A stretch of DNA of 64,000 nt from NCBI GenBank assembly GCA_943737045.1, contig CALSFV010000231.1, positions 946,343 through 1,010,342 of the forward strand. The letters are read 5' to 3'. Positions 1 to 62,489 of this stretch are shown one piece after another (position 1 is the stretch's first letter; the number at the start of each line of letters is the position of its first letter). This stretch comes from Parapristionchus giblindavisi. Taxonomy: Eukaryota > Nematoda > Chromadorea > Rhabditida > Diplogasteridae. The notes below the pieces were generated by a model. That model saw nothing but the letters and a program-made list of their open reading frames with translations. It ran no database searches and was not told the origin of the DNA. The position numbers and the translations under genes were made by a program.

Positions 1-1488
1 GATAGAGATTGTGGTGTAGATGGCTACAGTAATCTAGTAAACGTCGATCATTACAGAGTGTATTCGATAGAGATTGTGGTGTAGATGGATACAGTAATCT
101 AGTAAACGTCGATCATTACAGTGTTTATTCAATAGAGATTGTGGTGTAGATGGATACAGTAATCTAGTAAACGTCGATCATTACAGAGTGTATTCGATAG
201 AGATTGTGGTGTAGATGGATACAGTAATCTAGTAAACGTCGATCATTACAGAGTGTATTCGATAGAGATTGTGGTGTAGATGGATACAGTAATCTAGTAA
301 ACGTCGATCATTACAGAGTGTATTCGATAGAGATTGTGGTGTAGATGGATACAGTAATCTAGTAAACGTCGATCATTACAGAGTGTATTCGATAGAGATT
401 GTGGTGTAGATGGATACAGTAATTTAGTAAACGCCGATCATAACACTGTGTATGCGATATAGATTGTAGTGTAGAGGGCTACAGTAATCTAGCAAACATC
501 GATCATTACAGAGTGTATTCGATAGAGATTGTGGTGTAGATGGATACAGTAATCTAGTAAACGTCGATCATTACAGAGAGTATTCGATAGAGATTGTGGT
601 GTAGATGGATACAGTAATCTAGTAAACGTCGATCATTACAGAGTGTATTCGATAGAGATTGTGGTGTAGATGGATACAGTAATCTAGTAAACGTCGATCA
701 TTACAGAGTGTATTCGATAGAGATTGTGGTGTAGATGGCTACAGTAATCTAGTAAACGTCGATCATTACAGAGTGTATTCGATAGAGATTGTGGTGTAGA
801 TGGATACAGTAATTTAGTAAACGCCGATCATAACACTGTGTATGCGATATAGATTGTAGTGTAGAGGGCTACAGTAATCTAGCAAACGTCGATCATTACA
901 GAGTGTATTCGATAGAGATTGTGGTGTAGATGGATACAGTAATCTAGTAAACGTCGATCATTACAGAGAGTATTCGATAGAGATTGTGGTGTAGATGGAT
1001 ACAGTAATCTAGTAAACGTCGATCATTACAGAGTGTATTCGATAGAGATTGTGGTGTAGATGGATACAGTAATCTAGTAAACGTCGATCATTACAGAGTG
1101 TATTCGATAGAGATTGTGGTGTAGATGGATACAGTAATCTAGTAAACGTCGATCATTACAGAGTGTATTCGATAGAGATTGTGGTGTAGATGGATACAGT
1201 AATCTAGTAAACGTCGATCATTACAGAGTGTATTCGATAGAGATTGTGGTGTAGATGGATACAGTAATCTAGTAAACGTCGATCATTACAGAGTATATTC
1301 GATAGAGATTGTGGTGTAGATGGATACAGTAATCTAGTAAACGTCGATCATTACAGTGTTTATTCAATAGAGATTGTGGTGTAGATGGATACAGTAATCT
1401 AGTAAACGTCGATCATTACAGTGTTTATTCAATAGAGATTGTGGTGTAGATGGATACAGTAATCTAGTAAACGTCGATCATTACAGTG
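1..1488. repeat. 65-bp satellite array, about 23 copies
   Basis: A 65 bp unit beginning GATAGAGATTGTGG repeats head to tail from the window edge, so the true start is outside. Most units are nearly identical. Two divergent units (near 415-490 and 805-880) share the same variants, which points to higher-order amplification. Each unit contains GATCATTACAG, and the last unit runs directly into the first LMBR1-type exon, so the unit looks like an amplified 3' intron end. The same unit recurs at 19771-20196 and as a remnant beside the copy near 8400. Confidence 0.97.
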
Positions 1489-1767
1489 TGTGACGTCACT
1501 GGCGGAATCGATTGGAAGTATTGCCCCTGCTGCCATTCTCGGTCTTGGGCGCGGAGTTACTCCAGAGGTAGGATACATTATTGTTTCTCGAACGAAAAGA
1601 CCAGCATTGGTTTACGTCGATTGCATCGCTGGTTTAATATGCATCTGCTACGAGAAATCGCCTAGTTTGAAAGCCAAACTATCTCTACTTCTGAAACTGA
1701 TCGCATATTGATAAATATCGATTCATTGGCCACTAATCGATAATTTCTCTCAATTATTGATTATCCA

Positions 1768-19770: not shown

Positions 19771-20196
19771 TACTAGAGATAATACTAGTAAACGTCGATC
19801 ATTACAGAGTGTATTCGATAGAGATTGTGGTGTAGATGGATACAGTAATCTAGTAAACGTCGATCATTACAGAGTGTATTAAATAGAGATTGTGGTGTAG
19901 ATGGATACAGTAATCTAGTAAACGTCGATCATTACAGAGTGTATTCGATAGAGATTGTGGTGTAGATGGATACAGTAATCTAGTAAACGTCGATCATTAC
20001 AGAGTGTATTAAATAGAGATTGCGGTGTAGATGGATACAGTTATCTAGTAAACGTCGATCATTACAGAGTGTATTCGATAGAGATTGTGGTGTAGATGGA
20101 TACAGTAATCTAGTAAACGTCGATCATTACAGAGTGTATTCGATAGAGATTGTGGTGTAGATGGATACAGTAATCTAGTAAACGTCGATCATTACA
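19771..20196. repeat. 65-bp satellite array, about 6.5 copies
   Basis: Same unit as 1-1488, again ending at CATTACAG directly before the LMBR1 exon. Two units have AAATAG in place of CGATAG, variants not seen in the first array, so the arrays have amplified separately. Confidence 0.95.
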
Positions 20197-20204
20197 GTGT
20201 GTGA

Positions 20205-21358
<1,154 letters not shown>

Positions 21359-29082: not shown

Positions 29083-30890
29083 TTCCTGGGGGGGGGGGGG
29101 TGACATTTCCGCAACCGACATTTCCGCAACCGACATTTCCGCAACCGACATTTCCGCAACGGGGAATAACTCGGTTCGTAGGGGTCATAGAAACTTGGGA
29201 TGGGTATCATTGTGATCAGCATCAGTAGCACTACCGTAATCTACCGTAACCTAGTTCGGTGTTTCAGATCAAGTTCGGTGGGTCAGATCGGGGCATAACT
29301 CGGTTCGTAGGGGTCATAGAAACACGAGATGGGTATCAATGTGATCAGCATCAGCAACACTACAGTAATCTACCGTAACCCGGTTCGGTGGGTCAGATCA
29401 AGTTTGGTGGGTCAGATTTGACTAAAAATTGTCGGAATGGCCATTACGTGTGCGTTATCATTTTGAGCTATTGTAAAATACCGTAATCTACCGTAACCCG
29501 GTTCGATGGGTCAGATCAAGTTCGGTGGGTCAGATTTCACTACAAACTGCCGGAATGGCCACTACATGTGCGAAATCATGATGAGCTATTGCAAACTACC
29601 GTAACCAGGTTCGGTGGGTCAGATCAAGTGCGGTGGGTCAGAACTCAGTATAAATTGTCCAAATGGTCACTATGTGCGGGGTATGATTATAAGTTATTTT
29701 AAATTACCGTAATCCACCGTAATCCGGTTCGGTGGGTCAGATCAAGTGCGATGTATCATATTTCACTAAAAAGTGTCCAAATGGTAGTTTACAATTACTC
29801 ATAATCATACCACGCGCATAGTAATCATTTGGACATTTTTTAGTGAAATCTGAGCCACCGAACTTAATCTGACCCACCGATCCGGGTTATGGTAGATTAC
29901 AGTAGTTTGCAATAGCTGATAATGATATCGCACATGTAGCGGCCATGCAGACAATTTTTACTGAGATCTGACCCGCCGCACTTGATCTGACCCACCGAAC
30001 CTGGTTACGGTAGTTTGCAATAGCTCATCATGATTTCGCACATGTAGTGGCCATTCCGACAATTTTTAGTTAAATCTGACCCACCGAATTTGATCTGACC
30101 CACCGAACCGGGTTACGGTAGATTACTGTAGTTTACAATAGCTCATAATGATATCGCACACGTAGTGGCCATTCCGACAGTTTGTAGTGAAATCTGACCC
30201 ACCGCACTTAATCTGACCCGCCGAACTGGGTTACGGTAGATTACGGTAGTCTACAATAAGTTATAATCATATCACTCACGTATTAGTTATTCCTGCAATT
30301 TAAACTCAAATCTGACCCTTCGCACTTGATCTGACCCACCGAACCGGGTTACGGTAGATTACGGTAGCTCACCATCGCTTGGACGCGTGTGCGGGTGTCG
30401 CGAGGATCTTGGCAGCAAGTCGAGTCTCTGAGGTCTCTGGGGGCGCGTTTGGCGTTCGGAAAACGGCATTGAGGAACGCGATGCAAGGCTCCACCCCGCA
30501 TTAACATTCGAGTGTTGCATCCATTTTAGGACCTCGCTTTCACATGGTTCCGGAAATGGTACCGACTTCGGACCGATTGAGCGCATGGCCGATATGTGGC
30601 CGAGTAGGAAAAGATCAAAGGTCAATTATTGGTTGGATAAATACATGTGATGAGGAGTCGAACGATACCCTTTCCGCTCGTCTTGGATGATTTTGAGCGA
30701 AATCACGCCTCACTGCAAAAATGTAGCGGAGTTAGCAAAGATCCAAGATCAATATGTGACATGATAGTGCTACCGATGCTGATCACAATGATACCCATCC
30801 CATGGTTCTAGGACCCCGACGAGCCGAGTTATTCCCCGTTGCGGAAATGTCGGTTGCGGAAATGCCGTTGCGGAAATGTCACCCCCCCCC
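29083..30890. mobile_element. Foldback element with G/C-run ends
   Basis: The left end is a 13-G run then four copies of a CGACATTTCCGCAAC unit; the right end is the mirror, with three copies and a 9-C run. The arms pair around position about 29991 and consist largely of GGTTCGGTGGGTCAGATCAA units in opposite orientations. It interrupts an SRP68 exon; CTCAT occurs at both edges as a possible target duplication. A GC-richer unique segment (30365-30760) sits inside the right arm. Confidence 0.85.
30359..30625 (-). CDS. Unique ORF inside foldback arm (possible captured gene piece)
   Basis: An 88-codon frame includes SIGPKSVPFPEPCESEVLKW and ends near CCAAGCGATGGTGAGC, which would provide a splice donor. 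The segment has no mirror copy in the other arm and is GC-richer than its surroundings. The product is not recognised. Confidence 0.3.
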   Translation of the reverse strand: MTFDLFLLGHISAMRSIGPKSVPFPEPCESEVLKWMQHSNVNAGWSLASRSSMPFSERQTRPQRPQRLDLLPRSSRHPHTRPSDGELP

Positions 30891-33189: not shown

Positions 33190-33365
33190 GATACAAATTG
33201 ACCAGTTCAGTTCTGGTTTCAGACTTGATGTGTTTTTTTTCAACACTACAATGCATTGCAATGATTTTAATGAATTAATATTGGAGCAGCGACTGGGCGA
33301 TTTACTTGTTCTTTGAACTTTTAAACTATCCTTACCTCAATTCATCACGCTGAATAATCGTCATT
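33190..33365 (-). pseudogene. SRP68: SRP68 fragment (SETRTQL and QRDEL pieces)
   Basis: On - AAACCAGAACTGAACTGGTC encodes the SETRTQLV segment. A second piece ends QRDELR at a GTAAGG donor (33336). The same two pieces lie at 62173-62400. The 13 kb palindrome inserted at 33366, and the continuation resumes at 46450. Confidence 0.6.
33360..33365. repeat. Target-site duplication GTCATT (left)
   Basis: The exact 6 bp match to 46444-46449, immediately outside the two ends of the giant palindrome. Confidence 0.85.
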
Positions 33366-33409
33366 AGTAGTATAGGTCTGTCTCCCGACCAGAAAAAACA
33401 GCTGTCTAT

Positions 33410-33500
33410 AGGATGTTTTTTTGAGATGTTTTTTGAGATGTTTTTTGTTTGTTTTTTAAGTTGTTTTTTGTTTGTTTTTTGAGATGTTTTTTAAGTTGAT
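33410..33500. repeat. Subterminal GTTTTTTGAGAT-type tandem repeats (left)
   Basis: About six imperfect copies of a 12-16 bp T-rich unit lie 45 bp inside the left end; the mirror is at 46310-46400. Subterminal repeats like these are common transposase-binding candidates. Confidence 0.65.
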
Positions 33501-33784
33501 TTTTTTTTGTTTACTTTATCGATTTTTTTGTAGATCAATCAAAATGATAATAATGATTGACAACTCTTATCAGCCAATCAATAAAATCACTCTAATCAAT
33601 TACTACAATAATCAACAGTAATAAACAATAATAAACAGTAATAAACAGTAATCAATAATACAGTAATCAATTTGAAAATCATCACATTATCGATTTTTTG
33701 TAGATCAATGATTCATATTATCGATTATTTGAAGATAAAAAAACAATTGAAATCACAGTAATCAACAAAGACTTACCAGACAGA

Positions 33785-33840
33785 CGCAACCGCACGGTCG
33801 ACTAATGAAGCTATAGACTGAGCTACCTAGGGGCGGGGCC
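33785..33840 (-). repeat. tRNA-like segment in left arm
   Basis: On - CCTAGGTAGCTCAGTCTATA resembles a D-arm/box A; no good box B follows. The mirror copy is at 45970-46025 (+). Confidence 0.35.
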
Positions 33841-34331
33841 TCCTCCCACACATCGAAACTCCGCCCACCCTCTTGCTTTTACATTATCTATCTGCCTAAT
33901 AGAAAAGAGAGAGAGAACCAACAATACTGCCCAGATAGCTTATATAGCAATCACTCCAGTTACCAGTCATAACGAACTGTATACATTATAGTATATAATA
34001 TATACTGAAGCTAAAGGGTGAATGATAGAGAGAGAGATAGGTGTCAAGAGGTACGGAGAGGTACCAAGATAAACGAAGGCCCGGATTAAAGAGGTTAAAG
34101 TCTTTCCCGCTCATCGGTATTGAGAGATATAAACACTCAAACCAGACAACTTGCGAGGCCTTGATTATATGGGTACAGCAAGAGTCATTTCGTAAAAATG
34201 AAGACGGGATTGTGGCAGTACTCGGGATTGTGGCAGTGTCAGAGAGATACAGCAGCCAAATCATTTATTCACTTTCTTTGATGACACACATAATAAACAA
34301 ATCCATTAAATATAAACTGCGACAACCATAG

Positions 34332-37300
34332 TAAAACCCATCTAACTAGTGATTACGTAACTAGGATATTCCAACTGAAATTAGTAGAGATAAAGTATAA
34401 TATAAATACTTAAACCAGACAGCTCTCCAAAAAGCGTAATGCCATATATCGTGGTTGAGAAAGAGAAGCGGAGAAGCAGAGAGGGTCATAAAACCAATGA
34501 AAGAGACAAAAAAAAATAAACGTGTAAATCATTAATTCATAGAAAGAGCACATCTCTACAGTGATTCATTCCTTTTTAGTAACTAAATCAGACCATCATT
34601 CTATGAACATGGAAATCTAGAAACATCAACTCAACTGGAGCACCGATAATGCAAATGTATGAAAAGTTATATTATTGATATAGAGGTGAAATTAACGGTT
34701 TATGAGTGAAGACACATCTCCAATTAGTATGACCATACAAAAAAATACAGTCCACTATTATTACTCCGAATTCACACAGACGCTACTCAACACTAACTAA
34801 TAAGGAAAATGTTTTGATGAATAGTGCATTGCATACGAATTATATATTGATTTGATCAAGCTACTGAAATCAAAAGAGACAAAGCTCAATGCAAATGCGC
34901 GAAAAATATTACGGGAAAAGATTACACGAAGGAATATAACAGGAATATTACAACCATACAAGTGTCATATCCTTACTTTCAAAGTTCGACCCTATCCAGC
35001 GCTACTTCTCGGTTGAATCGACGAGTGGCCAATTCACATTCTCCTCAGAATGTTCCAACAAAAAATCATATTTTTACTAGAGTACATTTGCATGCTTTTT
35101 ATATACTGTACTTCACGTTGAATTATCGTTCCTTTCTTTATTCATAGGGTCAGAGATCGACCTCGAATCATCGCCTTGGGACTTTATTTATTCATACAGA
35201 GCGAATTCAGCCCGGATCAAATAAAGGTGGCGGTAAATAAGAAGTGAGAGAGATAAACCCCTCAACAATACTAAAAAATCTAGAAAGCAACCACTAATGA
35301 TGCATTTGTGCGTTAGAAACAATACATATTGGAAATCTTAATAGTAGACATACGCTAAGATAGTTATTTATTTGTATAATAGTACTAACGCTGTGGCACA
35401 CAACTATGTTTCTGTTCATTTCACTGGATTTGCATGGGATATAACTAAAGGTGAATAACTAAAGAATGTAGATCTTGCAGTACACACCCTATCGATATTG
35501 GATGATCGGTGGTGGTTGATATGCTGAGTTTATACACTTTCCATTATGTAAATACACTTATATGAAACATAGTCCAAACCTGTTGTCCCGTTTGTTTTTT
35601 CTATTATTTTGAGATGTGCTCTGATGAAATACATGTATATGGCACACTGTCTATAGGTGAAATCATGGTCTTCTATAGTGTTTTCGTTGTCAAAGTCTTT
35701 TCAGGTAACGAACGTCCAAACATCACTTATTGATATAGTGTACATAGCTATTCTAACTAGAATGATCAGAACCCCTTATTTATATAACGATGTTTCTTGA
35801 TGATGAACACTAGGCGTATTTACATTTTTACGATATCTAAAGTTGATTAAACATCGTAATACTACATATAAACACCATCTCTGCCTCTTTATCTATATCG
35901 TAACATCGCATTTATGCGGACTGAACTAATCATGCACTGCACAATACTACTCATATTTTAGCGGCAGATACACTCTACTTTTCCACAACATAAAGTGTGT
36001 TTTTATTATTGTTTCGTATGCAGTAATAAACGGGCAAAAATTATTCTACATATCGTGCACTAATTCATTCAAGTTATTGTCCGCTAGAATCATGAATGAA
36101 TAACACTGAATGTTAATTTCTATAACCGGTAAAAAGCACGATTTTGAATGGTAAAGATATCGAAAATGTAAGTGGGAACTCTCCCGGTACGGTACTTTCT
36201 ACTTACTGAGCTACACTGATGCCTCTCGAATCTAGTAGTAGTAAACATAAATCAACATTGTTGGACCCATATATTACACCAAATCAGCCTTTAATACTTC
36301 ATTACCACGATTAACTTTCACAATGTAGGACATCTTAACTGTTTCAATCAACACAAACAATCATGACAAATCTTTATAATTATTTGATCACATACTGATT
36401 TATGTAATATAGTATAATCATGAACCATTTAATTGTTGAACTATGTACTAATTTATGTAGTCAAACATTGCTATATAGAACCACGGATGTATATCGCGCA
36501 AGAGTGTACAGAACCGCTCAACCCTTCGTAATGATATGATGAAATGCATATCATTACATGATCAAACACGACATTAACGCGATCATACATGAAAATACCA
36601 AAATCCTGTTTAAGTTTGCATTTATCCATGGTAATTCAAGCATCTAAGTTCTAAATGATTTATCGAACAATATGTAGATAGATTCGCTTTGCATGGAGTT
36701 ATATGTATATGTTTGCATACGTTTGCTACAGATATACCTACTATTTCATTGTTTAGCCTAGCATGAGGCTATTGTAAAACCGATAACGTTGAAATGGTTA
36801 TGCTTAAAGCCAATCATGTTCAAATTACAAAATTAAAGAATAATAACATGTCAAAATCTATCGCGTGTGGTTGAATACTCAGTAAAATGTATAAGTTTAG
36901 ATCTAATACAGCATTATAGTCTATCATTCATATTCTCAATGCAATGTGTTACAAATTTATCTTATTCTTGGAGAATCATGAGGTTTTTACTCGAACAACT
37001 ATGTTGTCTGATTAATAATTCAAACAATATGCTTTTCTATTATAAGAAATGGCCCAAAATATGGATTCATAGTTTTTAAGTAATGGTCTCTTGAAAATCG
37101 TCATATTGTAAGTTCCGGGTACAACCAACCAGTTTCCGATATACTATGCTATTAACTTGAACAGGACCTTCCAACAGATTACCTAGAACATCACAACCGC
37201 ATAGCTCAATCATCACAACTTCAGTTCATTTCAAGAAAATGAGACACCATTGAAACCGTTAATTTATGATATAAAGTGAGAAAGGCTTCCGGTTTTATAT

Positions 37301-37913
37301 ATTACACATCACCAATCTGTTTAGAAAAGCAATCTGCAATCGTTTACTCCAACACCGGTTGTTCAGAGAAGAATTTCAAGAACAGGTTCTTCAAGAATAC
37401 AAAAATATACCATCGAGATTAGTGATTTCTACGCTAACAACACATCCTATTAGTTAACTGACTACATATTTAAAAGATGCATGAGTAGTGATATTACAGA
37501 AATAGACTCTTTATGTATGGCTAAGTTTGTCAAACTTTTGAATAATCCATATTATAACCATGAATTAATAAACAAAATAGAATTACAAGTATATCATTGA
37601 TTATGTAATGCAGCTATACATTACACACTAATGAACACCTTTCAATCCTTTCAATAGTTGCCTTATTTATTGATGAGGAGAGAAATATCCACAAATCTTA
37701 CATTTATTCGATCAATAGTTTGGTTTACTTTTGATAGGAAACACCAATGAATCTATTACTATATACCGATTACATCTAAATATTGTCTAAGATGCTTATT
37801 AAAAATGATCAATATGCAACACGTGTTGTGTGCTCAACGCAGACACAAAGATGTATGGTCTATTAACAAATCTTCAATTAAACTCTAAATATTATATGTT
37901 ATCTGCTATGCAT
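34332..37913. other. Non-coding interior of left arm
   Basis: AT-rich sequence of even composition without long frames, splice patterns or homology that I can recognise. A second tRNA-like D-arm (TGTAGCTCAGTAAGTAG on -) lies near 36190-36225. The exact mirror is 41900-45478. Confidence 0.6.
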
Positions 37914-39494
37914 TCAGACGTAAAGATATGTCAAAATCTTTCACGGTACACATAATAACCAATACATAACCATGACATGACCAAACAGAGCATAACCATA
38001 ACCACAACATGACATTGATTACTGTAATATATTTTATCTGCTATGCACTCACACGTAAAGATATACCAAATTCTTTCATGGCACACATTATAACCGTTAC
38101 ATAACCATGACATGACCAAACACAGCATAACCATAACCATAACATGACATTGATTATTGTATTCTCTTTTATCTGCAATGCACTCAGACGTAAAGATATG
38201 TCAAAATCTTTCAAGGTACGCATGATAACCACTACATAATCATGACATAACTAAGCCTAAGCCTAAGCCAATACATAACCATGACATAACCAAACATAAC
38301 ATAACCATGACATAACCATAACATGACCAAACATAGCATACCCATAACCACAACATGACATCGATTATTGTATTCTATTTTATCTGCTATGCACTCACAC
38401 GTAAAGATATACCAAATTCTTTCAAAGTATACATAATAACCAATACATAACCATGACATAACCAAACATAGCATAACCATGACATAATCAAACATAGCAT
38501 AACCATGACATAACCAAACATAGCATAACCATGACATAACCAAACATAGCATAACCATGACATAACCAAACATAGCATAAACATAACCATTACATGACAT
38601 TGATTACTGTATTCTATTTTATCTGCTATGCACTCACACGTAAAGATATACCAAATTCTTTCAAAGTATACATAATAACCAATACATAACCATGACATAA
38701 CCAAACATAGCATAACCATGACATAACCAAACATGTCATAACCATGACATAACCAAACATATCATAACCATGACATAAACAAACATAGCATTACCATAAC
38801 CATTACATGACATAGGTTACTGTATTCTATTTTATCTGCCATGCACTCACACGTAAAGATATACCAAATTCTTTCATGGCACACATTATAACCGTTACAT
38901 AACCATGACATGACCAAACACAGCATAACCATAACCATAACATGACATTGATTATTGTATTCTCTTTTATCTGCAATGCACTCAGACGTAAAGATATGTC
39001 AAAATCTTTCAAGGTACGCATGATAACCACTACATAATCATGACATAACTAAGCCTAAGCCTAAGCCTAACCATAACATGACATTGATTATAGTATTCTA
39101 TTTTATCTGCTATGCACTCAGACGTAAAGATATGTCAAAATCTTTCAAGGTACGCATGATAACCACTACATAATCATGACATAACTAAGCCTAAGCCTAA
39201 GCCTAACCATAACATGACATTGATTATAGTATTCTATTTTATCTGCTATGCACTCAGACGTAAAGATATGTCAAAATCTTTCAAGGTACGCATGATAACC
39301 ACTACATAATCATGACATAACTAAGCCTAAGCCTAAGCCTAACCATAACATGACATTGATTATTGTATTCTCTTCTATCTGCTATGCACTCAGACGTAAA
39401 GATATGTCAAAATCTTTCAAGGTACGCATGATAACCACTACAAAATCATGACATAACTAAACCTAAGCCTAAGCCTAACCATAACATGATATTG
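37914..39494. repeat. 136-bp satellite with telomere-like triplets, left arm
   Basis: Mirror of 40316-41896. On + the units contain CTAAGCCTAAGCCTAAGCC, the reverse of the nematode telomere repeat. Confidence 0.93.
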
Positions 39495-39842
39495 ATTGCT
39501 CTACGTTTTTTATCGGATAGTTAACCTGAGATGTCATTTGATTGATTTGCAAAAATTGATAATGCGGTAAACATTGTTCTTTCAACGACATGGTATTAAT
39601 AAGTGTATTACTGTACTGGGATTGCCCCTTATGATCATTTGGTTAAAAAATAGTTACTTACAAGTAGCCTCAACCTCAACCTTTATCTTTTTTTACAGAA
39701 ACTGTAAACCGACACAAAAAACTGTTTACTCAAGACTCATTAGCGTTAAAGGCACATCTGAACTATTTTTTACCCTCCGCTCTGGCACACTCTCTCGCAG
39801 ACAAAGAAAGAGAGAGAGAGTGGTCAGTGCGGGGAGTTTCAA

Positions 39843-39967
39843 ATCATTTAAGAGCGAAAAAAGCATTTAAGAGTAACCTTATCAACCACTAACTCTCTCT
39901 CGTAATCAGAAAACGAAGAAACAGTGTGTGAAATAAAGAGATGGATTGAAATTAGGAGAAGTCTAAC
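39843..39967. other. Palindrome spacer
   Basis: These 125 bases separate the arms and are the only unique part of the element. They include two direct AGCATTTAAGAG/ATCATTTAAGAG motifs and no open frame of note. Confidence 0.85.
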
Positions 39968-40315
39968 TTGAAACTCCCCGCACTGACCACTCTCTCTCTC
40001 TTTCTTTGTCTGCGAGAGAGTGTGCCAGAGCGGAGGGTAAAAAATAGTTCAGATGTGCCTTTAACGCTAATGAGTCTTGAGTAAACAGTTTTTTGTGTCG
40101 GTTTACAGTTTCTGTAAAAAAAGATAAAGGTTGAGGTTGAGGCTACTTGTAAGTAACTATTTTTTAACCAAATGATCATAAGGGGCAATCCCAGTACAGT
40201 AATACACTTATTAATACCATGTCGTTGAAAGAACAATGTTTACCGCATTATCAATTTTTGCAAATCAATCAAATGACATCTCAGGTTAACTATCCGATAA
40301 AAAACGTAGAGCAAT

Positions 40316-41896
40316 CAATATCATGTTATGGTTAGGCTTAGGCTTAGGTTTAGTTATGTCATGATTTTGTAGTGGTTATCATGCGTACCTTGAAAGATTT
40401 TGACATATCTTTACGTCTGAGTGCATAGCAGATAGAAGAGAATACAATAATCAATGTCATGTTATGGTTAGGCTTAGGCTTAGGCTTAGTTATGTCATGA
40501 TTATGTAGTGGTTATCATGCGTACCTTGAAAGATTTTGACATATCTTTACGTCTGAGTGCATAGCAGATAAAATAGAATACTATAATCAATGTCATGTTA
40601 TGGTTAGGCTTAGGCTTAGGCTTAGTTATGTCATGATTATGTAGTGGTTATCATGCGTACCGTGAAAGATTTTGACATATCTTTACGTCTGAGTGCATAG
40701 CAGATAAAATAGAATACTATAATCAATGTCATGTTATGGTTAGGCTTAGGCTTAGGCTTAGTTATGTCATGATTATGTAGTGGTTATCATGCGTACCTTG
40801 AAAGATTTTGACATATCTTTACGTCTGAGTGCATTGCAGATAAAAGAGAATACAATAATCAATGTCATGTTATGGTTATGGTTATGCTGTGTTTGGTCAT
40901 GTCATGGTTATGTAACGGTTATAATGTGTGCCATGAAAGAATTTGGTATATCTTTACGTGTGAGTGCATGGCAGATAAAATAGAATACAGTAACCTATGT
41001 CATGTAATGGTTATGGTAATGCTATGTTTGTTTATGTCATGGTTATGATATGTTTGGTTATGTCATGGTTATGACATGTTTGGTTATGTCATGGTTATGC
41101 TATGTTTGGTTATGTCATGGTTATGTATTGGTTATTATGTATACTTTGAAAGAATTTGGTATATCTTTACGTGTGAGTGCATAGCAGATAAAATAGAATA
41201 CAGTAATCAATGTCATGTAATGGTTATGTTTATGCTATGTTTGGTTATGTCATGGTTATGCTATGTTTGGTTATGTCATGGTTATGCTATGTTTGGTTAT
41301 GTCATGGTTATGCTATGTTTGATTATGTCATGGTTATGCTATGTTTGGTTATGTCATGGTTATGTATTGGTTATTATGTATACTTTGAAAGAATTTGGTA
41401 TATCTTTACGTGTGAGTGCATAGCAGATAAAATAGAATACAATAATCGATGTCATGTTGTGGTTATGGGTATGCTATGTTTGGTCATGTTATGGTTATGT
41501 CATGGTTATGTTATGTTTGGTTATGTCATGGTTATGTATTGGCTTAGGCTTAGGCTTAGTTATGTCATGATTATGTAGTGGTTATCATGCGTACCTTGAA
41601 AGATTTTGACATATCTTTACGTCTGAGTGCATTGCAGATAAAAGAGAATACAATAATCAATGTCATGTTATGGTTATGGTTATGCTGTGTTTGGTCATGT
41701 CATGGTTATGTAACGGTTATAATGTGTGCCATGAAAGAATTTGGTATATCTTTACGTGTGAGTGCATAGCAGATAAAATATATTACAGTAATCAATGTCA
41801 TGTTGTGGTTATGGTTATGCTCTGTTTGGTCATGTCATGGTTATGTATTGGTTATTATGTGTACCGTGAAAGATTTTGACATATCTTTACGTCTGA
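40316..41896. repeat. 136-bp satellite with telomere-like triplets, right arm
   Basis: Units start TCAATGTCATG and recur at 40451, 40587, 40723 and 40859, exactly 136 bp apart. Units nearest the centre contain GGTTAGGCTTAGGCTTAGGC; the next ones carry GGTTATGCTATGTTTGG in the same position, with internal 26 bp sub-repeats of GGTTATGTCAT type. One telomere-like unit reappears at 41541. Frames of up to 122 codons here are repeat artefacts. Confidence 0.95.
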
Positions 41897-44800
41897 ATGC
41901 ATAGCAGATAACATATAATATTTAGAGTTTAATTGAAGATTTGTTAATAGACCATACATCTTTGTGTCTGCGTTGAGCACACAACACGTGTTGCATATTG
42001 ATCATTTTTAATAAGCATCTTAGACAATATTTAGATGTAATCGGTATATAGTAATAGATTCATTGGTGTTTCCTATCAAAAGTAAACCAAACTATTGATC
42101 GAATAAATGTAAGATTTGTGGATATTTCTCTCCTCATCAATAAATAAGGCAACTATTGAAAGGATTGAAAGGTGTTCATTAGTGTGTAATGTATAGCTGC
42201 ATTACATAATCAATGATATACTTGTAATTCTATTTTGTTTATTAATTCATGGTTATAATATGGATTATTCAAAAGTTTGACAAACTTAGCCATACATAAA
42301 GAGTCTATTTCTGTAATATCACTACTCATGCATCTTTTAAATATGTAGTCAGTTAACTAATAGGATGTGTTGTTAGCGTAGAAATCACTAATCTCGATGG
42401 TATATTTTTGTATTCTTGAAGAACCTGTTCTTGAAATTCTTCTCTGAACAACCGGTGTTGGAGTAAACGATTGCAGATTGCTTTTCTAAACAGATTGGTG
42501 ATGTGTAATATATAAAACCGGAAGCCTTTCTCACTTTATATCATAAATTAACGGTTTCAATGGTGTCTCATTTTCTTGAAATGAACTGAAGTTGTGATGA
42601 TTGAGCTATGCGGTTGTGATGTTCTAGGTAATCTGTTGGAAGGTCCTGTTCAAGTTAATAGCATAGTATATCGGAAACTGGTTGGTTGTACCCGGAACTT
42701 ACAATATGACGATTTTCAAGAGACCATTACTTAAAAACTATGAATCCATATTTTGGGCCATTTCTTATAATAGAAAAGCATATTGTTTGAATTATTAATC
42801 AGACAACATAGTTGTTCGAGTAAAAACCTCATGATTCTCCAAGAATAAGATAAATTTGTAACACATTGCATTGAGAATATGAATGATAGACTATAATGCT
42901 GTATTAGATCTAAACTTATACATTTTACTGAGTATTCAACCACACGCGATAGATTTTGACATGTTATTATTCTTTAATTTTGTAATTTGAACATGATTGG
43001 CTTTAAGCATAACCATTTCAACGTTATCGGTTTTACAATAGCCTCATGCTAGGCTAAACAATGAAATAGTAGGTATATCTGTAGCAAACGTATGCAAACA
43101 TATACATATAACTCCATGCAAAGCGAATCTATCTACATATTGTTCGATAAATCATTTAGAACTTAGATGCTTGAATTACCATGGATAAATGCAAACTTAA
43201 ACAGGATTTTGGTATTTTCATGTATGATCGCGTTAATGTCGTGTTTGATCATGTAATGATATGCATTTCATCATATCATTACGAAGGGTTGAGCGGTTCT
43301 GTACACTCTTGCGCGATATACATCCGTGGTTCTATATAGCAATGTTTGACTACATAAATTAGTACATAGTTCAACAATTAAATGGTTCATGATTATACTA
43401 TATTACATAAATCAGTATGTGATCAAATAATTATAAAGATTTGTCATGATTGTTTGTGTTGATTGAAACAGTTAAGATGTCCTACATTGTGAAAGTTAAT
43501 CGTGGTAATGAAGTATTAAAGGCTGATTTGGTGTAATATATGGGTCCAACAATGTTGATTTATGTTTACTACTACTAGATTCGAGAGGCATCAGTGTAGC
43601 TCAGTAAGTAGAAAGTACCGTACCGGGAGAGTTCCCACTTACATTTTCGATATCTTTACCATTCAAAATCGTGCTTTTTACCGGTTATAGAAATTAACAT
43701 TCAGTGTTATTCATTCATGATTCTAGCGGACAATAACTTGAATGAATTAGTGCACGATATGTAGAATAATTTTTGCCCGTTTATTACTGCATACGAAACA
43801 ATAATAAAAACACACTTTATGTTGTGGAAAAGTAGAGTGTATCTGCCGCTAAAATATGAGTAGTATTGTGCAGTGCATGATTAGTTCAGTCCGCATAAAT
43901 GCGATGTTACGATATAGATAAAGAGGCAGAGATGGTGTTTATATGTAGTATTACGATGTTCAATCAACTTTAGATATCGTAAAAATGTAAATACGCCTAG
44001 TGTTCATCATCAAGAAACATCGTTATATAAATAAGGGGTTCTGATCATTCTAGTTAGAATAGCTATGTACACTATATCAATAAGTGATGTTTGGACGTTC
44101 GTTACCTGAAAAGACTTTGACAACGAAAACACTATAGAAGACCATGATTTCACCTATAGACAGTGTGCCATATACATGTATTTCATCAGAGCACATCTCA
44201 AAATAATAGAAAAAACAAACGGGACAACAGGTTTGGACTATGTTTCATATAAGTGTATTTACATAATGGAAAGTGTATAAACTCAGCATATCAACCACCA
44301 CCGATCATCCAATATCGATAGGGTGTGTACTGCAAGATCTACATTCTTTAGTTATTCACCTTTAGTTATATCCCATGCAAATCCAGTGAAATGAACAGAA
44401 ACATAGTTGTGTGCCACAGCGTTAGTACTATTATACAAATAAATAACTATCTTAGCGTATGTCTACTATTAAGATTTCCAATATGTATTGTTTCTAACGC
44501 ACAAATGCATCATTAGTGGTTGCTTTCTAGATTTTTTAGTATTGTTGAGGGGTTTATCTCTCTCACTTCTTATTTACCGCCACCTTTATTTGATCCGGGC
44601 TGAATTCGCTCTGTATGAATAAATAAAGTCCCAAGGCGATGATTCGAGGTCGATCTCTGACCCTATGAATAAAGAAAGGAACGATAATTCAACGTGAAGT
44701 ACAGTATATAAAAAGCATGCAAATGTACTCTAGTAAAAATATGATTTTTTGTTGGAACATTCTGAGGAGAATGTGAATTGGCCACTCGTCGATTCAACCG

Positions 44801-45969
44801 AGAAGTAGCGCTGGATAGGGTCGAACTTTGAAAGTAAGGATATGACACTTGTATGGTTGTAATATTCCTGTTATATTCCTTCGTGTAATCTTTTCCCGTA
44901 ATATTTTTCGCGCATTTGCATTGAGCTTTGTCTCTTTTGATTTCAGTAGCTTGATCAAATCAATATATAATTCGTATGCAATGCACTATTCATCAAAACA
45001 TTTTCCTTATTAGTTAGTGTTGAGTAGCGTCTGTGTGAATTCGGAGTAATAATAGTGGACTGTATTTTTTTGTATGGTCATACTAATTGGAGATGTGTCT
45101 TCACTCATAAACCGTTAATTTCACCTCTATATCAATAATATAACTTTTCATACATTTGCATTATCGGTGCTCCAGTTGAGTTGATGTTTCTAGATTTCCA
45201 TGTTCATAGAATGATGGTCTGATTTAGTTACTAAAAAGGAATGAATCACTGTAGAGATGTGCTCTTTCTATGAATTAATGATTTACACGTTTATTTTTTT
45301 TTGTCTCTTTCATTGGTTTTATGACCCTCTCTGCTTCTCCGCTTCTCTTTCTCAACCACGATATATGGCATTACGCTTTTTGGAGAGCTGTCTGGTTTAA
45401 GTATTTATATTATACTTTATCTCTACTAATTTCAGTTGGAATATCCTAGTTACGTAATCACTAGTTAGATGGGTTTTACTATGGTTGTCGCAGTTTATAT
45501 TTAATGGATTTGTTTATTATGTGTGTCATCAAAGAAAGTGAATAAATGATTTGGCTGCTGTATCTCTCTGACACTGCCACAATCCCGAGTACTGCCACAA
45601 TCCCGTCTTCATTTTTACGAAATGACTCTTGCTGTACCCATATAATCAAGGCCTCGCAAGTTGTCTGGTTTGAGTGTTTATATCTCTCAATACCGATGAG
45701 CGGGAAAGACTTTAACCTCTTTAATCCGGGCCTTCGTTTATCTTGGTACCTCTCCGTACCTCTTGACACCTATCTCTCTCTCTATCATTCACCCTTTAGC
45801 TTCAGTATATATTATATACTATAATGTATACAGTTCGTTATGACTGGTAACTGGAGTGATTGCTATATAAGCTATCTGGGCAGTATTGTTGGTTCTCTCT
45901 CTCTTTTCTATTAGGCAGATAGATAATGTAAAAGCAAGAGGGTGGGCGGAGTTTCGATGTGTGGGAGGA

Positions 45970-46025
45970 GGCCCCGCCCCTAGGTAGCTCAGTCTATAGC
46001 TTCATTAGTCGACCGTGCGGTTGCG
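45970..46025 (+). repeat. tRNA-like segment in right arm
   Basis: Mirror of 33785-33840: TAGGTAGCTCAGTCTATAGC followed by GTCGACCGTGCGGTTGCG. Confidence 0.35.
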
Positions 46026-46443
46026 TCTGTCTGGTAAGTCTTTGTTGATTACTGTGATTTCAATTGTTTTTTATCTTCAAATAATCGATAATATGAATCA
46101 TTGATCTACAAAAAATCGATAATGTGATGATTTTCAAATTGATTACTGTATTATTGATTACTGTTTATTACTGTTTATTATTGTTTATTACTGTTGATTA
46201 TTGTAGTAATTGATTAGAGTGATTTTATTGATTGGCTGATAAGAGTTGTCAATCATTATTATCATTTTGATTGATCTACAAAAAAATCGATAAAGTAAAC
46301 AAAAAAAAATCAACTTAAAAAACATCTCAAAAAACAAACAAAAAACAACTTAAAAAACAAACAAAAAACATCTCAAAAAACATCTCAAAAAAACATCCTA
46401 TAGACAGCTGTTTTTTCTGGTCGGGAGACAGACCTATACTACT

Positions 46444-46449
46444 GTCATT
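46444..46449. repeat. Target-site duplication GTCATT (right)
   Basis: Matches 33360-33365. Confidence 0.85.
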
Positions 46450-53522: not shown

Positions 53523-53692
53523 ATATATTCTCATTCCATCCATTGTAGGTAATCCAATCTCACTGATGATGAGGAAATAATCCTCGAAACGTCTGAGTAA
53601 TAAAGTTTCTCTCTTCATACTAACTGGTCTCACACAGCATCCACAAGTCACACCAAATATACACCAAAATGAAGATAACTGAGTATTCTAAA
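53523..53692 (+). mobile_element. 170-bp retroposon-like insertion with hammerhead-like core
   Basis: A 13 bp duplication ATCTCTGATCTTC (53510-53522 and 53693-53705) flanks it and the insert ends in AAA, as in target-primed insertion. Removing it restores ISDLPLILPHN across the reverse transcriptase. It includes the ribozyme-like motif at 53559-53597. Confidence 0.85.
53559..53597 (+). ncRNA. Candidate minimal hammerhead ribozyme
   Basis: The order is CTCA, CTGATGA, stem GAGGA-AATAA-TCCTC, GAAAC, GTC, TGAG. CTCA/TGAG can form helix I, GAGGA/TCCTC helix II, and AC/GT a two-pair helix III before the GTC cleavage triplet. That is the layout of minimal type I hammerheads of Penelope-like elements and animal retrozymes. 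One extra T before helix II is non-canonical. Confidence 0.5.
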
Positions 53693-54541
53693 ATCTCTGA
53701 TCTTCCTCTCATTCTTCCTCACAACGTACGATGCACTATATATGCTGATGATGTCAAGCTCTATTCCTTTAATGACCCTTCTTCACTTCAAACCGCATTA
53801 GACTCTCTCCATCAGTGGTCTCTAGACTGGGGTCTATCCATCTCTTTATCCAAAACTGTAGTAATGCATTTAGGCAACAGACACCCTACCCTCGATCTTC
53901 ATATCAATGGTATCAAACTTCCTGTAGTTAAAGAGTTCACTGATCTCGGTATATCATACGATAATCGACTATCTTTCTCATCTCATATCCAATCTATTGT
54001 AGCCAGAGCAAATTCCAGATGTGCATATATTTATCGCATTTTTCACACCTCTTATCTCAAGCTTTATTCACGTCTTTTCATCACTTATGTAAGACCTATT
54101 CTTGAATACGCGTCTGAACTGTGGTCACCTCATGAAGGTCATCTAATAAAGCTCATTGAAAACGTACAAAGGACTTACACTCGTCGCGTTTTCTACAAAT
54201 GCAAGCTACCGTATGCTTCATATCCTGATAGATTATCATTACTCAAACTAGAGCCTCTTGAATCGCGCCGCAAACTATCTGATCTTTGTTTTACCTATAA
54301 AGCTACACATGGACTTATTGATCTTGACAATCCTTCTTTCTTTATTCCCTCTATAAATACTAGATCTTCCCGCAGACACGCATTCCAATATCGTAAACAC
54401 AATGCTAAATCTACTCGCTTCTCGAACTTCATATCAAATCGTGTTGTTAGTAATTGGAATAAACTTAGTAATAATTCTATTATCTGCCCCTCAGTTAAAT
54501 CTTTCCGGAAATGTATAAATTTGTCGTTACTCGAAATGTAA
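53669..54541 (+). CDS. LINE reverse transcriptase, C-terminal part (YADD)
   Basis: The 290-codon frame is real from about PLILPHN onward (53706). It contains TIYADDVKLYSF (catalytic YADD), HLGNRHPTLDLHINGIKL, the TDLGISYDNRLSFSSHI block, and VRPILEYASELWSPHEG followed by NVQRTYTRRVF, typical of CR1/Jockey-like proteins. The first 12 codons come from the 170 bp insertion. It ends normally at a TAA near 54542. It is probably immobile because the 5' half is missing. Confidence 0.9.
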   Translation: MKITEYSKISDLPLILPHNVRCTIYADDVKLYSFNDPSSLQTALDSLHQWSLDWGLSISLSKTVVMHLGNRHPTLDLHINGIKLPVVKEFTDLGISYDNRLSFSSHIQSIVARANSRCAYIYRIFHTSYLKLYSRLFITYVRPILEYASELWSPHEGHLIKLIENVQRTYTRRVFYKCKLPYASYPDRLSLLKLEPLESRRKLSDLCFTYKATHGLIDLDNPSFFIPSINTRSSRRHAFQYRKHNAKSTRFSNFISNRVVSNWNKLSNNSIICPSVKSFRKCINLSLLEM

Positions 54542-62172: not shown

Positions 62173-62400
62173 AAGCGATCATCAACTAGATGCACATCGA
62201 CCAGTTGAGTTCTGGTTTCAGACTTGGTGTATTTAAGCGTTTCGAGAAAATGGAAATGATGGGTATTTCGCTTTTTTTCAACACCACAATGATTTGAATG
62301 AATTGATATTAGAGCAGCGACTGGGCGATTAACTTGATCTTTGAACTTTTAAATAATCCTTACCTCAATTCATCACGCTGAATGATCAACAGTTTCGTGT
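62173..62400 (-). pseudogene. SRP68: SRP68 SETRTQL and QRDEL exons, right copy
   Basis: On - KLLIIQRDELR ends at a GTAAGG donor (62364), and further on TPSLKYTKSETRTQL-type sequence leads to the foldback insertion. This is the most 5' SRP68 sequence seen. Upstream is the GC-box module (62490-62550). Confidence 0.6.
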
Positions 62401-62489
62401 CTGGAGAATTGGCTTTACTTGTTGCTTCGTTAGTATAAAGCCTTCTGTTTTTACTGCTTGTTGTGTCAGTGTTCTCTGTATCCATCCCC

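What the first reader, a model, noticed from the sequence alone, without database searches (positions are those of the whole stretch)
33366..46443. 13-kb near-perfect palindrome with 6-bp target duplication: a gene-less Maverick/Polinton-like element
Seen directly: arms of 6477 and 6476 bp around a 125 bp spacer, ends starting AGTAGTATAGG on both sides, GTCATT on both sides, and host sequence that resumes across the insertion. Known: Maverick/Polinton elements make 6 bp duplications and start with AG. Inference: this is a non-autonomous derivative, perhaps two long terminal repeats fused after loss of the coding core, or a new class of giant foldback element. The few arm differences imply recent origin or gene conversion.
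Basis: partly seen in the sequence, partly recalled or inferred. Interest (0 to 1): 0.92.

Follow-up and report, generated by a model that had tools for sequence, protein, structure and literature searches.

The report
Giant palindromic satellites of Polinton viruses
This 13-kb stretch is an almost perfect DNA palindrome with the ends and 6-base target duplication of a Maverick/Polinton virus-like element, one of at least 25 such palindromic places in what is likely a roundworm genome, and it is likely a gene-less freeloader that full Polintons in the same genome would copy and insert; it matters because it suggests that an ordinary copying error of viruses can become a lasting family of jumping DNA.

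Summary
In detail: arms of 6477/6476 bp (99.95% identical), a 125-bp asymmetric spacer, AGTAGT...ACTACT ends, GTCATT on both sides. It belongs to a family: a probe across the centre finds 28 places in this genome, 25 of them two-armed, and 11 of 13 inverted loci whose ends I read carry perfect 6-bp duplications, all different. The genome also holds full-type Polintons (PolB, integrase, weak protease and capsid matches). One Polinton's end shares the AGTAGTATAG start with the palindromes, 91-92% identity over 960 bp with copy C29 and about 74% over 432 columns with the window. C29 carries integrase and PolB-side fragments in both arms; PolB (PF03175) matches lie at Polinton loci, none at the palindromes. 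New: a copy's two arms match each other better than any other copy (26 of 30 comparisons, 3 ties, 1 reversed), copies are mosaics, and C281 mirrors a captured high-copy repeat around a different centre. One arm is thus re-copied into the other. I read them as snap-back satellites homogenised during replication; chromosomal arm-to-arm gene conversion is the main rival. No replication or movement was observed.

The parts
33360..33365 (.). left 6-bp target duplication GTCATT
   Evidence: read directly
33366..39842 (+). left arm, 6477 bp, starting (AGT)2 ATAGG
33487..33862 (+). subterminal block shared with the right end of full-type Polinton C583 (74.5% over 432 columns; its first 154 bases 87%)
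35264..35752 (+). arm block 1899-2387; in relative C29 its counterpart starts at the base after the DNA match to the integrase segment, in C12 two bases after the integrase frame
   Evidence: C12 5137-5629; C29 5542-6036
37893..39497 (+). tandem-repeat region of the left arm (units of about 11 to 239 bp)
39843..39967 (.). conserved 125-bp asymmetric centre (spacer/loop)
39968..46443 (-). right arm, 6476 bp, mirror of the left, ending ACTACT
40313..41920 (-). mirror of the tandem-repeat region
44058..44546 (-). mirror of arm block 1899-2387
45948..46322 (-). mirror of the subterminal block shared with Polinton C583 (74.3%)
46444..46449 (.). right 6-bp target duplication GTCATT
   Evidence: read directly
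62287..62448 (+). paralogous empty site: host sequence running through the insertion point without the element (88%, 8 bases missing at the junction)

Best explanation
The block is an almost perfect palindrome with Maverick/Polinton-type ends, a 6-bp target duplication and no open frame of 150 codons, one of at least 25 palindromic centres in this (likely nematode) genome, and it is likely a snap-back satellite of the full-type Polintons present there: predicted to be replicated by a Polinton's protein-primed PolB from its end sequence and inserted by a Polinton's integrase. Shown: the anatomy; the family; ends, duplications and gene fragments shared with Polintons; absence of PolB matches at the palindromes; arms of one copy homogenised with each other while copies differ; mosaic relations between copies; a captured high-copy repeat mirrored in both arms of C281 around a different centre. 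Inferred: (1) the first palindromes arose when a displaced or broken Polinton strand folded back and was copied, leaving one end as two mirror-image arms; (2) because each single strand of such an element could fold into a hairpin of about 6.5 kb, differences between arms would be erased by copying or repair in the hairpin when it replicates; (3) Polinton integrase recognises (AGT)2 ends and inserts the copies with 6-bp duplications. Untested: that any step occurs today.
For: Family: 25 two-armed centres among 28 places matching over at least 150 bases (lower bound, 40 of 1549 candidates scored). Ends and duplications: (11 of 13 inverted loci read). (AGT)2//(ACT)2 ends with perfect 6-bp TSDs are a published Maverick signature (PMC8097293, passages). 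Full-type Polinton C583: 363-aa integrase frame with rve (E 3.2e-9) and a weak Chromo match, adenain-like protease (E 0.014, below cut-off) and DJR capsid (E 0.018, below cut-off); PF03175 over its cut-off at C583, C66, C312, C3, C32, C163, C35 (and at C384, C106, C203, C272, C478), none at the palindromes. Shared ends: C583 right end starts AGTAGTATAG; its first 960 bp match both arms of C29 at 91.2% and 91.9%, starting 368 bases inside C29's own termini, and bases 86-367 of C29 match C583 at 99.3%; about 74% over 432 columns with the window. Fragments in both arms: integrase in C29 with the same stop in each arm; PolB-side block of C583 at 75% in C29 arms and 92% in C103 arms. Homogenisation: 26 of 30 copy-block comparisons closer within than between copies, 3 ties, 1 reversed; the window's nearest relative changes along the arm (C103, C363, C655). 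Re-copying: C281 carries a 315-bp piece of a high-copy repeat as two mirror copies identical to each other and at most 96% like the 38 other scored copies.
Against: No replication, hairpin or movement was seen. Arm homogenisation alone is equally expected from gene conversion in the chromosome. Some arms are not homogenised: C363's outer 500 bp differ by 4.9% between arms, C211 has a LINE frame in one arm and a 2.4-kb block in the other only, C37 has a rearranged right arm. Two of 13 inverted loci (C326, C12) are symmetric beyond the element ends, so no duplication can be read, and another mechanism or an assembly fault is possible there. Most centres share one spacer, so fresh snap-back events would be rare. 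The outermost 85 bases of C29 differ from C583 apart from AGTAGTATAG and short stretches, and C29 has two stacked terminus copies per arm, which a single snap-back does not explain. Only one end of one Polinton was read, so its two-ended structure and TSD are untested.
Confidence: 0.6

Rival explanations
1. The palindromes are Polinton-derived, but their arms are kept identical after insertion by gene conversion between the two arms in the chromosome, as in primate Y palindromes (recalled).
For: Arms within a copy 97.8-99.95% identical in their longest aligned blocks while copies differ; shared arm-to-arm mosaics; explains homogenisation without any replication intermediate.
Against: Symmetry stops at the element ends in the 11 clean copies; large one-arm differences persist (C211, C37, C363); mirrored capture with a new centre in C281 is not explained by conversion between existing arms alone.
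Confidence: 0.28
2. A separate foldback-type DNA transposon family, with its own unknown transposase, that acquired Polinton-like end sequences and fragments.
For: Long, internally tandem-repetitive arms resemble Foldback/Galileo elements; C29 has a DDE transposase match far below cut-off (E 0.23).
Against: (AGT)2 ends with 6-bp TSDs are a Maverick signature; 91-92% identity over 960 bp of end sequence with a full-type Polinton; no transposase match above cut-off in the frames tested from the copies, other than the LINE frame in C211.
Confidence: 0.05
3. Host-kept hairpin loci that make long double-stranded RNA and small RNAs against Polintons; the palindrome is selected for its RNA.
For: A transcript across the centre would be a 6.5-kb hairpin; snap-back AAV genomes are proposed to allow dsRNA transcription (PMC8235507, abstract).
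Against: Scattered insertions with different target duplications point to mobility; no RNA data; no Rfam match.
Confidence: 0.04
4. Assembly artefact: missed-adapter fold-back reads or collapsed inverted haplotypes.
For: C12 and C326 are symmetric past the element ends, as an artefact would be.
Against: Matching 6-bp duplications, unlike flanks and a recurrent asymmetric spacer in many contigs.
Confidence: 0.02

Closest known systems
Maverick/Polinton elements (virus-like, PolB plus rve integrase)
   Same: (AGT)2 ends, 6-bp target duplications, subterminal sequence and gene fragments shared with Polintons in the same genome.
   Different: No PolB, integrase, protease or capsid match in the window; the whole element is two mirror arms around a short asymmetric centre, so the terminal repeat is the entire arm.
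Snap-back (self-complementary) defective genomes of adeno-associated virus
   Same: One end of a viral genome duplicated as an inverted repeat; such genomes replicate with helper functions (PMC8235507, passages).
   Different: Those are subgenomic particles of a parvovirus; these are chromosomal insertions with target duplications and a shared lineage.
Foldback/Galileo-type transposons
   Same: Long, internally repetitive inverted repeats (papers seen only in a search listing).
   Different: Those belong to other transposase superfamilies with other target-duplication lengths (recalled); here 6 bp and Polinton-type ends.
Arm-homogenised chromosomal palindromes such as those of the primate Y (recalled)
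   Same: Arms near identical within a palindrome, round a unique spacer.
   Different: These are dispersed copies with target duplications, not segmental palindromes.

Membership tests
Maverick/Polinton | terminal (AGT)2//(ACT)2 or (AG)3//(CT)3 motif | tested here: met
   AGTAGT...ACTACT in the window; AGTAGTAT at both ends of nine more copies and of C211; motif published for vertebrate Mavericks
Maverick/Polinton | 6-bp target-site duplication | tested here: met
   11 of 13 inverted loci read; the other two are symmetric into their flanks
Maverick/Polinton | encodes protein-primed PolB | tested here: not met
   no PF03175 match at any palindrome; only PolB-side fragments in arms of C29 and C103 and in the C12 arm read
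Maverick/Polinton | encodes rve integrase | tested here: not met
   no integrase match in the window; broken fragments in both arms of C29; C12, whose flanks are also mirrored, keeps a 102-aa frame below the rve cut-off
Maverick/Polinton | encodes capsid and protease | tested here: not met
   C583 capsid and protease frames have no match in the window or the palindrome pieces held; genome-wide capsid search did not complete
Maverick/Polinton | encodes packaging ATPase | not tested
   not looked for
Non-autonomous Polinton derivative | ends shared with an autonomous-type element in the same genome | tested here: met
   C583 right end: 91-92% over 960 bp with C29 arms, about 74% over 432 columns with the window; only the right end of one Polinton was read
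Non-autonomous Polinton derivative | mobilised in trans by Polinton proteins | not testable with these tools
   needs experiment
Foldback/Galileo | long internally repetitive inverted repeats | tested here: met
Foldback/Galileo | target-duplication length and transposase of that superfamily | tested here: not met
   6-bp duplications; no such transposase above cut-off in the frames tested; lengths for those families recalled

The most novel reading that the evidence does not exclude
These are defective-interfering genomes of an endogenous virus that became a self-sustaining transposon family: snap-back palindromes that live off Polinton PolB and integrase, re-copy one arm into the other at every replication cycle through a 6.5-kb hairpin, swap arm segments with each other, and capture host repeats, so that each copy is a fresh two-sided print of one strand.
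Probability: 0.42. Interest if true: 0.87.

Novelty: new variant of a known kind. Interest (0 to 1): 0.74.

Why it matters
How Polintons replicate is inferred, not watched (recalled), and their particles have not been observed (PMC8097293, abstract). A family whose shared content is Polinton ends in mirror image would be a natural reporter: what is kept (ends, centre) is what replication and insertion need, and homogenised arms point to a fold-back intermediate. It would also be a case of a viral copying error turned into a heritable mobile element, with at least 25 palindromic places that could destabilise chromosomes or make long double-stranded RNA.

Tried and rejected
Assembly artefact: rejected for the window (6-bp duplications, unlike flanks, recurrent asymmetric spacer), left open for C12 and C326. 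C211 as an autonomous partner: rejected, its 722-aa frame is a non-LTR reverse transcriptase lying in one arm. C12 as the clean autonomous partner: rejected, its symmetry extends into the flank and it has no PF03175 match. RNA gene in the element: no Rfam match. Pfam on single PolB pieces gave no PolB match; the exonuclease motifs that made me take them for PolB are recalled; the PF03175 genome search then placed PolB at C583. Paper searches listed no paper that I recognised as describing a palindromic or non-autonomous Polinton; the library holds only open-licence papers, the listings are cut, and I read passages of two papers only. The capsid search of the whole genome did not complete, so capsid copy number is unknown; in the protein collection the C583 capsid frame had one relative (71% identity, 60% covered, no Pfam domain). 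On checking the draft I found that the match of C583's end to C29 starts at an inner terminus copy, 368 bases inside C29's own ends, and corrected the text.
Full report
What is there. Window 33366-46443 is a near-perfect palindrome: arms of 6477 and 6476 bp at 99.95% identity (two substitutions and one one-base gap), a 125-bp asymmetric spacer at 39843-39967, AGTAGTATAGG at both ends and GTCATT on both sides. Neither of the window's two frames of 150 aa or more lies inside; no RNA family reaches its gathering score. The window lies in a 251-Mb, 703-contig genome. The exact 22-base SL1 spliced-leader exon occurs 351 times there (80 forward, 271 reverse; reversed control 0), which from recalled knowledge makes it a nematode. 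A paralogous host stretch at 62287-62448 runs through the insertion point without the element (88% over 170 columns, 8 bases missing at the junction).

It is a family. The end probe finds 42 matches in the genome (40 of 120 candidates scored), many as inverted pairs 13-24 kb apart; the 65-base terminus finds 24. I read both ends of 13 inverted loci. In 11 (window; C37, C1, C36, C363, C8, C103, C655, C281, C29; C211) the 6 bases on the two sides are identical to each other and differ between all copies. In the other two (C326, C12) the inverted symmetry continues into the flanks, so no duplication can be read. A probe over the centre matches 28 places over at least 150 bases; at 25 both arms are present, by my reading of the rows, and at three (C203, C320, C273:162152) only one (40 of 1549 candidates scored, so a lower bound). 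The spacer is conserved: 19 of 29 matches cover at least 123 of 125 bases at 90-100% identity, in either orientation. Eight centres read directly, the window's included, have spacers of 96-132 bp. C8, C1 and C281 have altered or different centres.

Relation to Polintons. (AGT)2//(ACT)2 termini with perfect 6-bp duplications are a published end signature of vertebrate Mavericks (PMC8097293, passages). Locus C583 of the same genome is a full-type Polinton: a 363-aa frame with rve (E 3.2e-9) and weak Chromo (E 0.06) matches, a frame with an adenovirus-endoprotease match below cut-off (E 0.014; best structure hit adenain, E 0.14, not significant) and one with a double-jelly-roll match below cut-off (E 0.018). 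The integrase has 590 relatives in the protein collection; of the 120 listed nearly all carry rve and most also chromo, and two bear an organism name, Caenorhabditis remanei (36% identity) and a cyanobacterial MAG (38%). PF03175 PolB matches over the cut-off occur at C583, C66, C312, C3, C32, C163 and C35, loci that each have a single, unpaired match to the integrase piece, and at C384, C106, C203, C272 and C478. None lies at a palindrome that I describe; C203 and C3 also carry centre matches, but more than 1 Mb away. A PolB-side piece of C583 gives the same picture: 9 matches, none at a palindrome.

Shared sequence. C583's right end starts AGTAGTATAG. Its first 960 bp align with both arms of palindrome C29 at 91.2% and 91.9%, but they begin 368 bases inside C29's own termini: C29 has a second, inner terminus copy there, and its bases 86-367 repeat C583 bases 49-330 at 99.3%; the outermost 85 bases of C29 share with C583 the AGTAGTATAG start and short stretches only. 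So each C29 arm carries two stacked Polinton ends. With the window, a subterminal block aligns at about 74% over 432 columns, the outer part of it at 87% over 159 columns. Arms of relatives are patchworks of Polinton pieces: C29 has an integrase N-terminal fragment in both arms with the same stop codon; a PolB-side block of C583 lies in both arms of C29 (75%) and of C103 (92%); C12 has integrase segments on both sides and the PolB-side block in the arm that I read. In C29 the block homologous to window 35264-35752 begins at the base after the DNA match to the integrase segment. So the palindromes descend from Polinton material and have lost the genes.

One arm is copied from the other. I aligned four arm blocks (two of them overlapping) from 11 copies; not every copy has every block, and arms covering less than 85% of a block were dropped. 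In 30 copy-block comparisons with both arms, measured from the left arm, the two arms of a copy are closer to each other than to any other copy in 26, tie in 3 (all in the close pair C36/C363) and are further apart in 1 (C363, outer 500 bp, 4.9%); measured from the right arm, C36 would also tie in the outer block. Apart from these, values are 0-0.4% within a copy and, outside the C36/C363 pair, 0.8-6.9% to the nearest other copy. The window's nearest relative changes along the arm (C103, C363, C655), and its two arms are identical in these blocks, so segments appear to be exchanged between copies and then made equal in both arms. In nine copies aligned over the outer arm, seven have 0-0.23% substitutions and no indel of 30 bp or more between arms, although only 12-73% of these outer left arms align to the window's arm; C37 (rearranged) and C363 are the exceptions. 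C281 is the most telling: around its own centre lie two mirror copies of a 315-bp piece of a high-copy repeat (best Pfam matches below cut-off: HTH_5, E 0.048; Mos1-type HTH_48, E 0.16). They are identical to each other but at most 96% like the 38 other scored copies (40 of 332 candidates scored). A single capture followed by mirror copying explains this; two independent insertions do not. C8 instead carries a 365-bp high-copy repeat once, at its centre.

Mechanism. I infer that a Polinton strand, exposed by protein-primed strand-displacement replication, folded back and was copied, turning one end into two mirror arms with two usable ends. Snap-back defective genomes of adeno-associated virus are built in this way (PMC8235507, passages). 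The palindrome would need only its ends: PolB and integrase would come from full Polintons. Because each strand could fold on itself, differences between arms would be erased during replication. Arm-to-arm gene conversion in the chromosome would also equalise arms and cannot be excluded; the stop of symmetry at the element ends in 11 copies and the surviving large one-arm changes in C211 and C37 lean against it as the sole cause. Not shown: replication, hairpin intermediates, mobilisation in trans, current activity.

Verdict. Class: non-autonomous, palindromic Polinton derivatives, a new variant of a known kind. The paper searches listed nothing that I recognised as describing such a family, but the library is partial.

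Noticed in passing
window 1-1491 and 19780-20202: The same 65-bp satellite unit occurs in both, each followed 908 bp later by an ATT microsatellite (2399-2557, 21110-21263): probably a larger duplicated block.
   Followed up: no
window 29102-30880: A second, smaller inverted repeat: 15-bp and about 118-bp tandem units mirrored round about 29783.
   Followed up: no
window 53669-54541: 290-aa frame with a reverse-transcriptase match (PF00078, E 1.4e-7): retrotransposon remnant.
   Followed up: partly
window 38255-39467 and 40332-41544: Both arms contain TTAGGC runs, the nematode telomere unit (recalled); eight overlapping matches of the double unit in each arm, in opposite orientations.
   Followed up: partly
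L026 142 and 509 (C29), mirrored in L027: Two stacked terminus copies per arm: an inner AGTAGTATAG end like that of Polinton C583 lies 368 bases inside the outer one.
   Followed up: partly
G000:C45 667821/676603 and C218 68404/69622: Further integrase frames in inverted pairs (67-71% aa identity), without PolB matches on those contigs: palindrome formation may recur in other Polinton families.
   Followed up: partly
L055 3-2168 (C211): A non-LTR reverse-transcriptase frame lies in one arm only of the 24-kb palindrome.
   Followed up: partly
G000:C12 756900-803250 and L023 (C326): Inverted symmetry runs past the element ends into the flanks; C12 also has an integrase-bearing unit in three tandem copies on one side.
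   Followed up: partly
first 30 bp of the ends (L029-L052): The terminal 30 bp vary between copies as if made of swapped short modules behind a nearly constant AGTAGTAT, while both ends of one copy agree.
   Followed up: no
G000:C145: Long tandem array (unit about 1.17 kb) carrying the SL1 exon.
   Followed up: no
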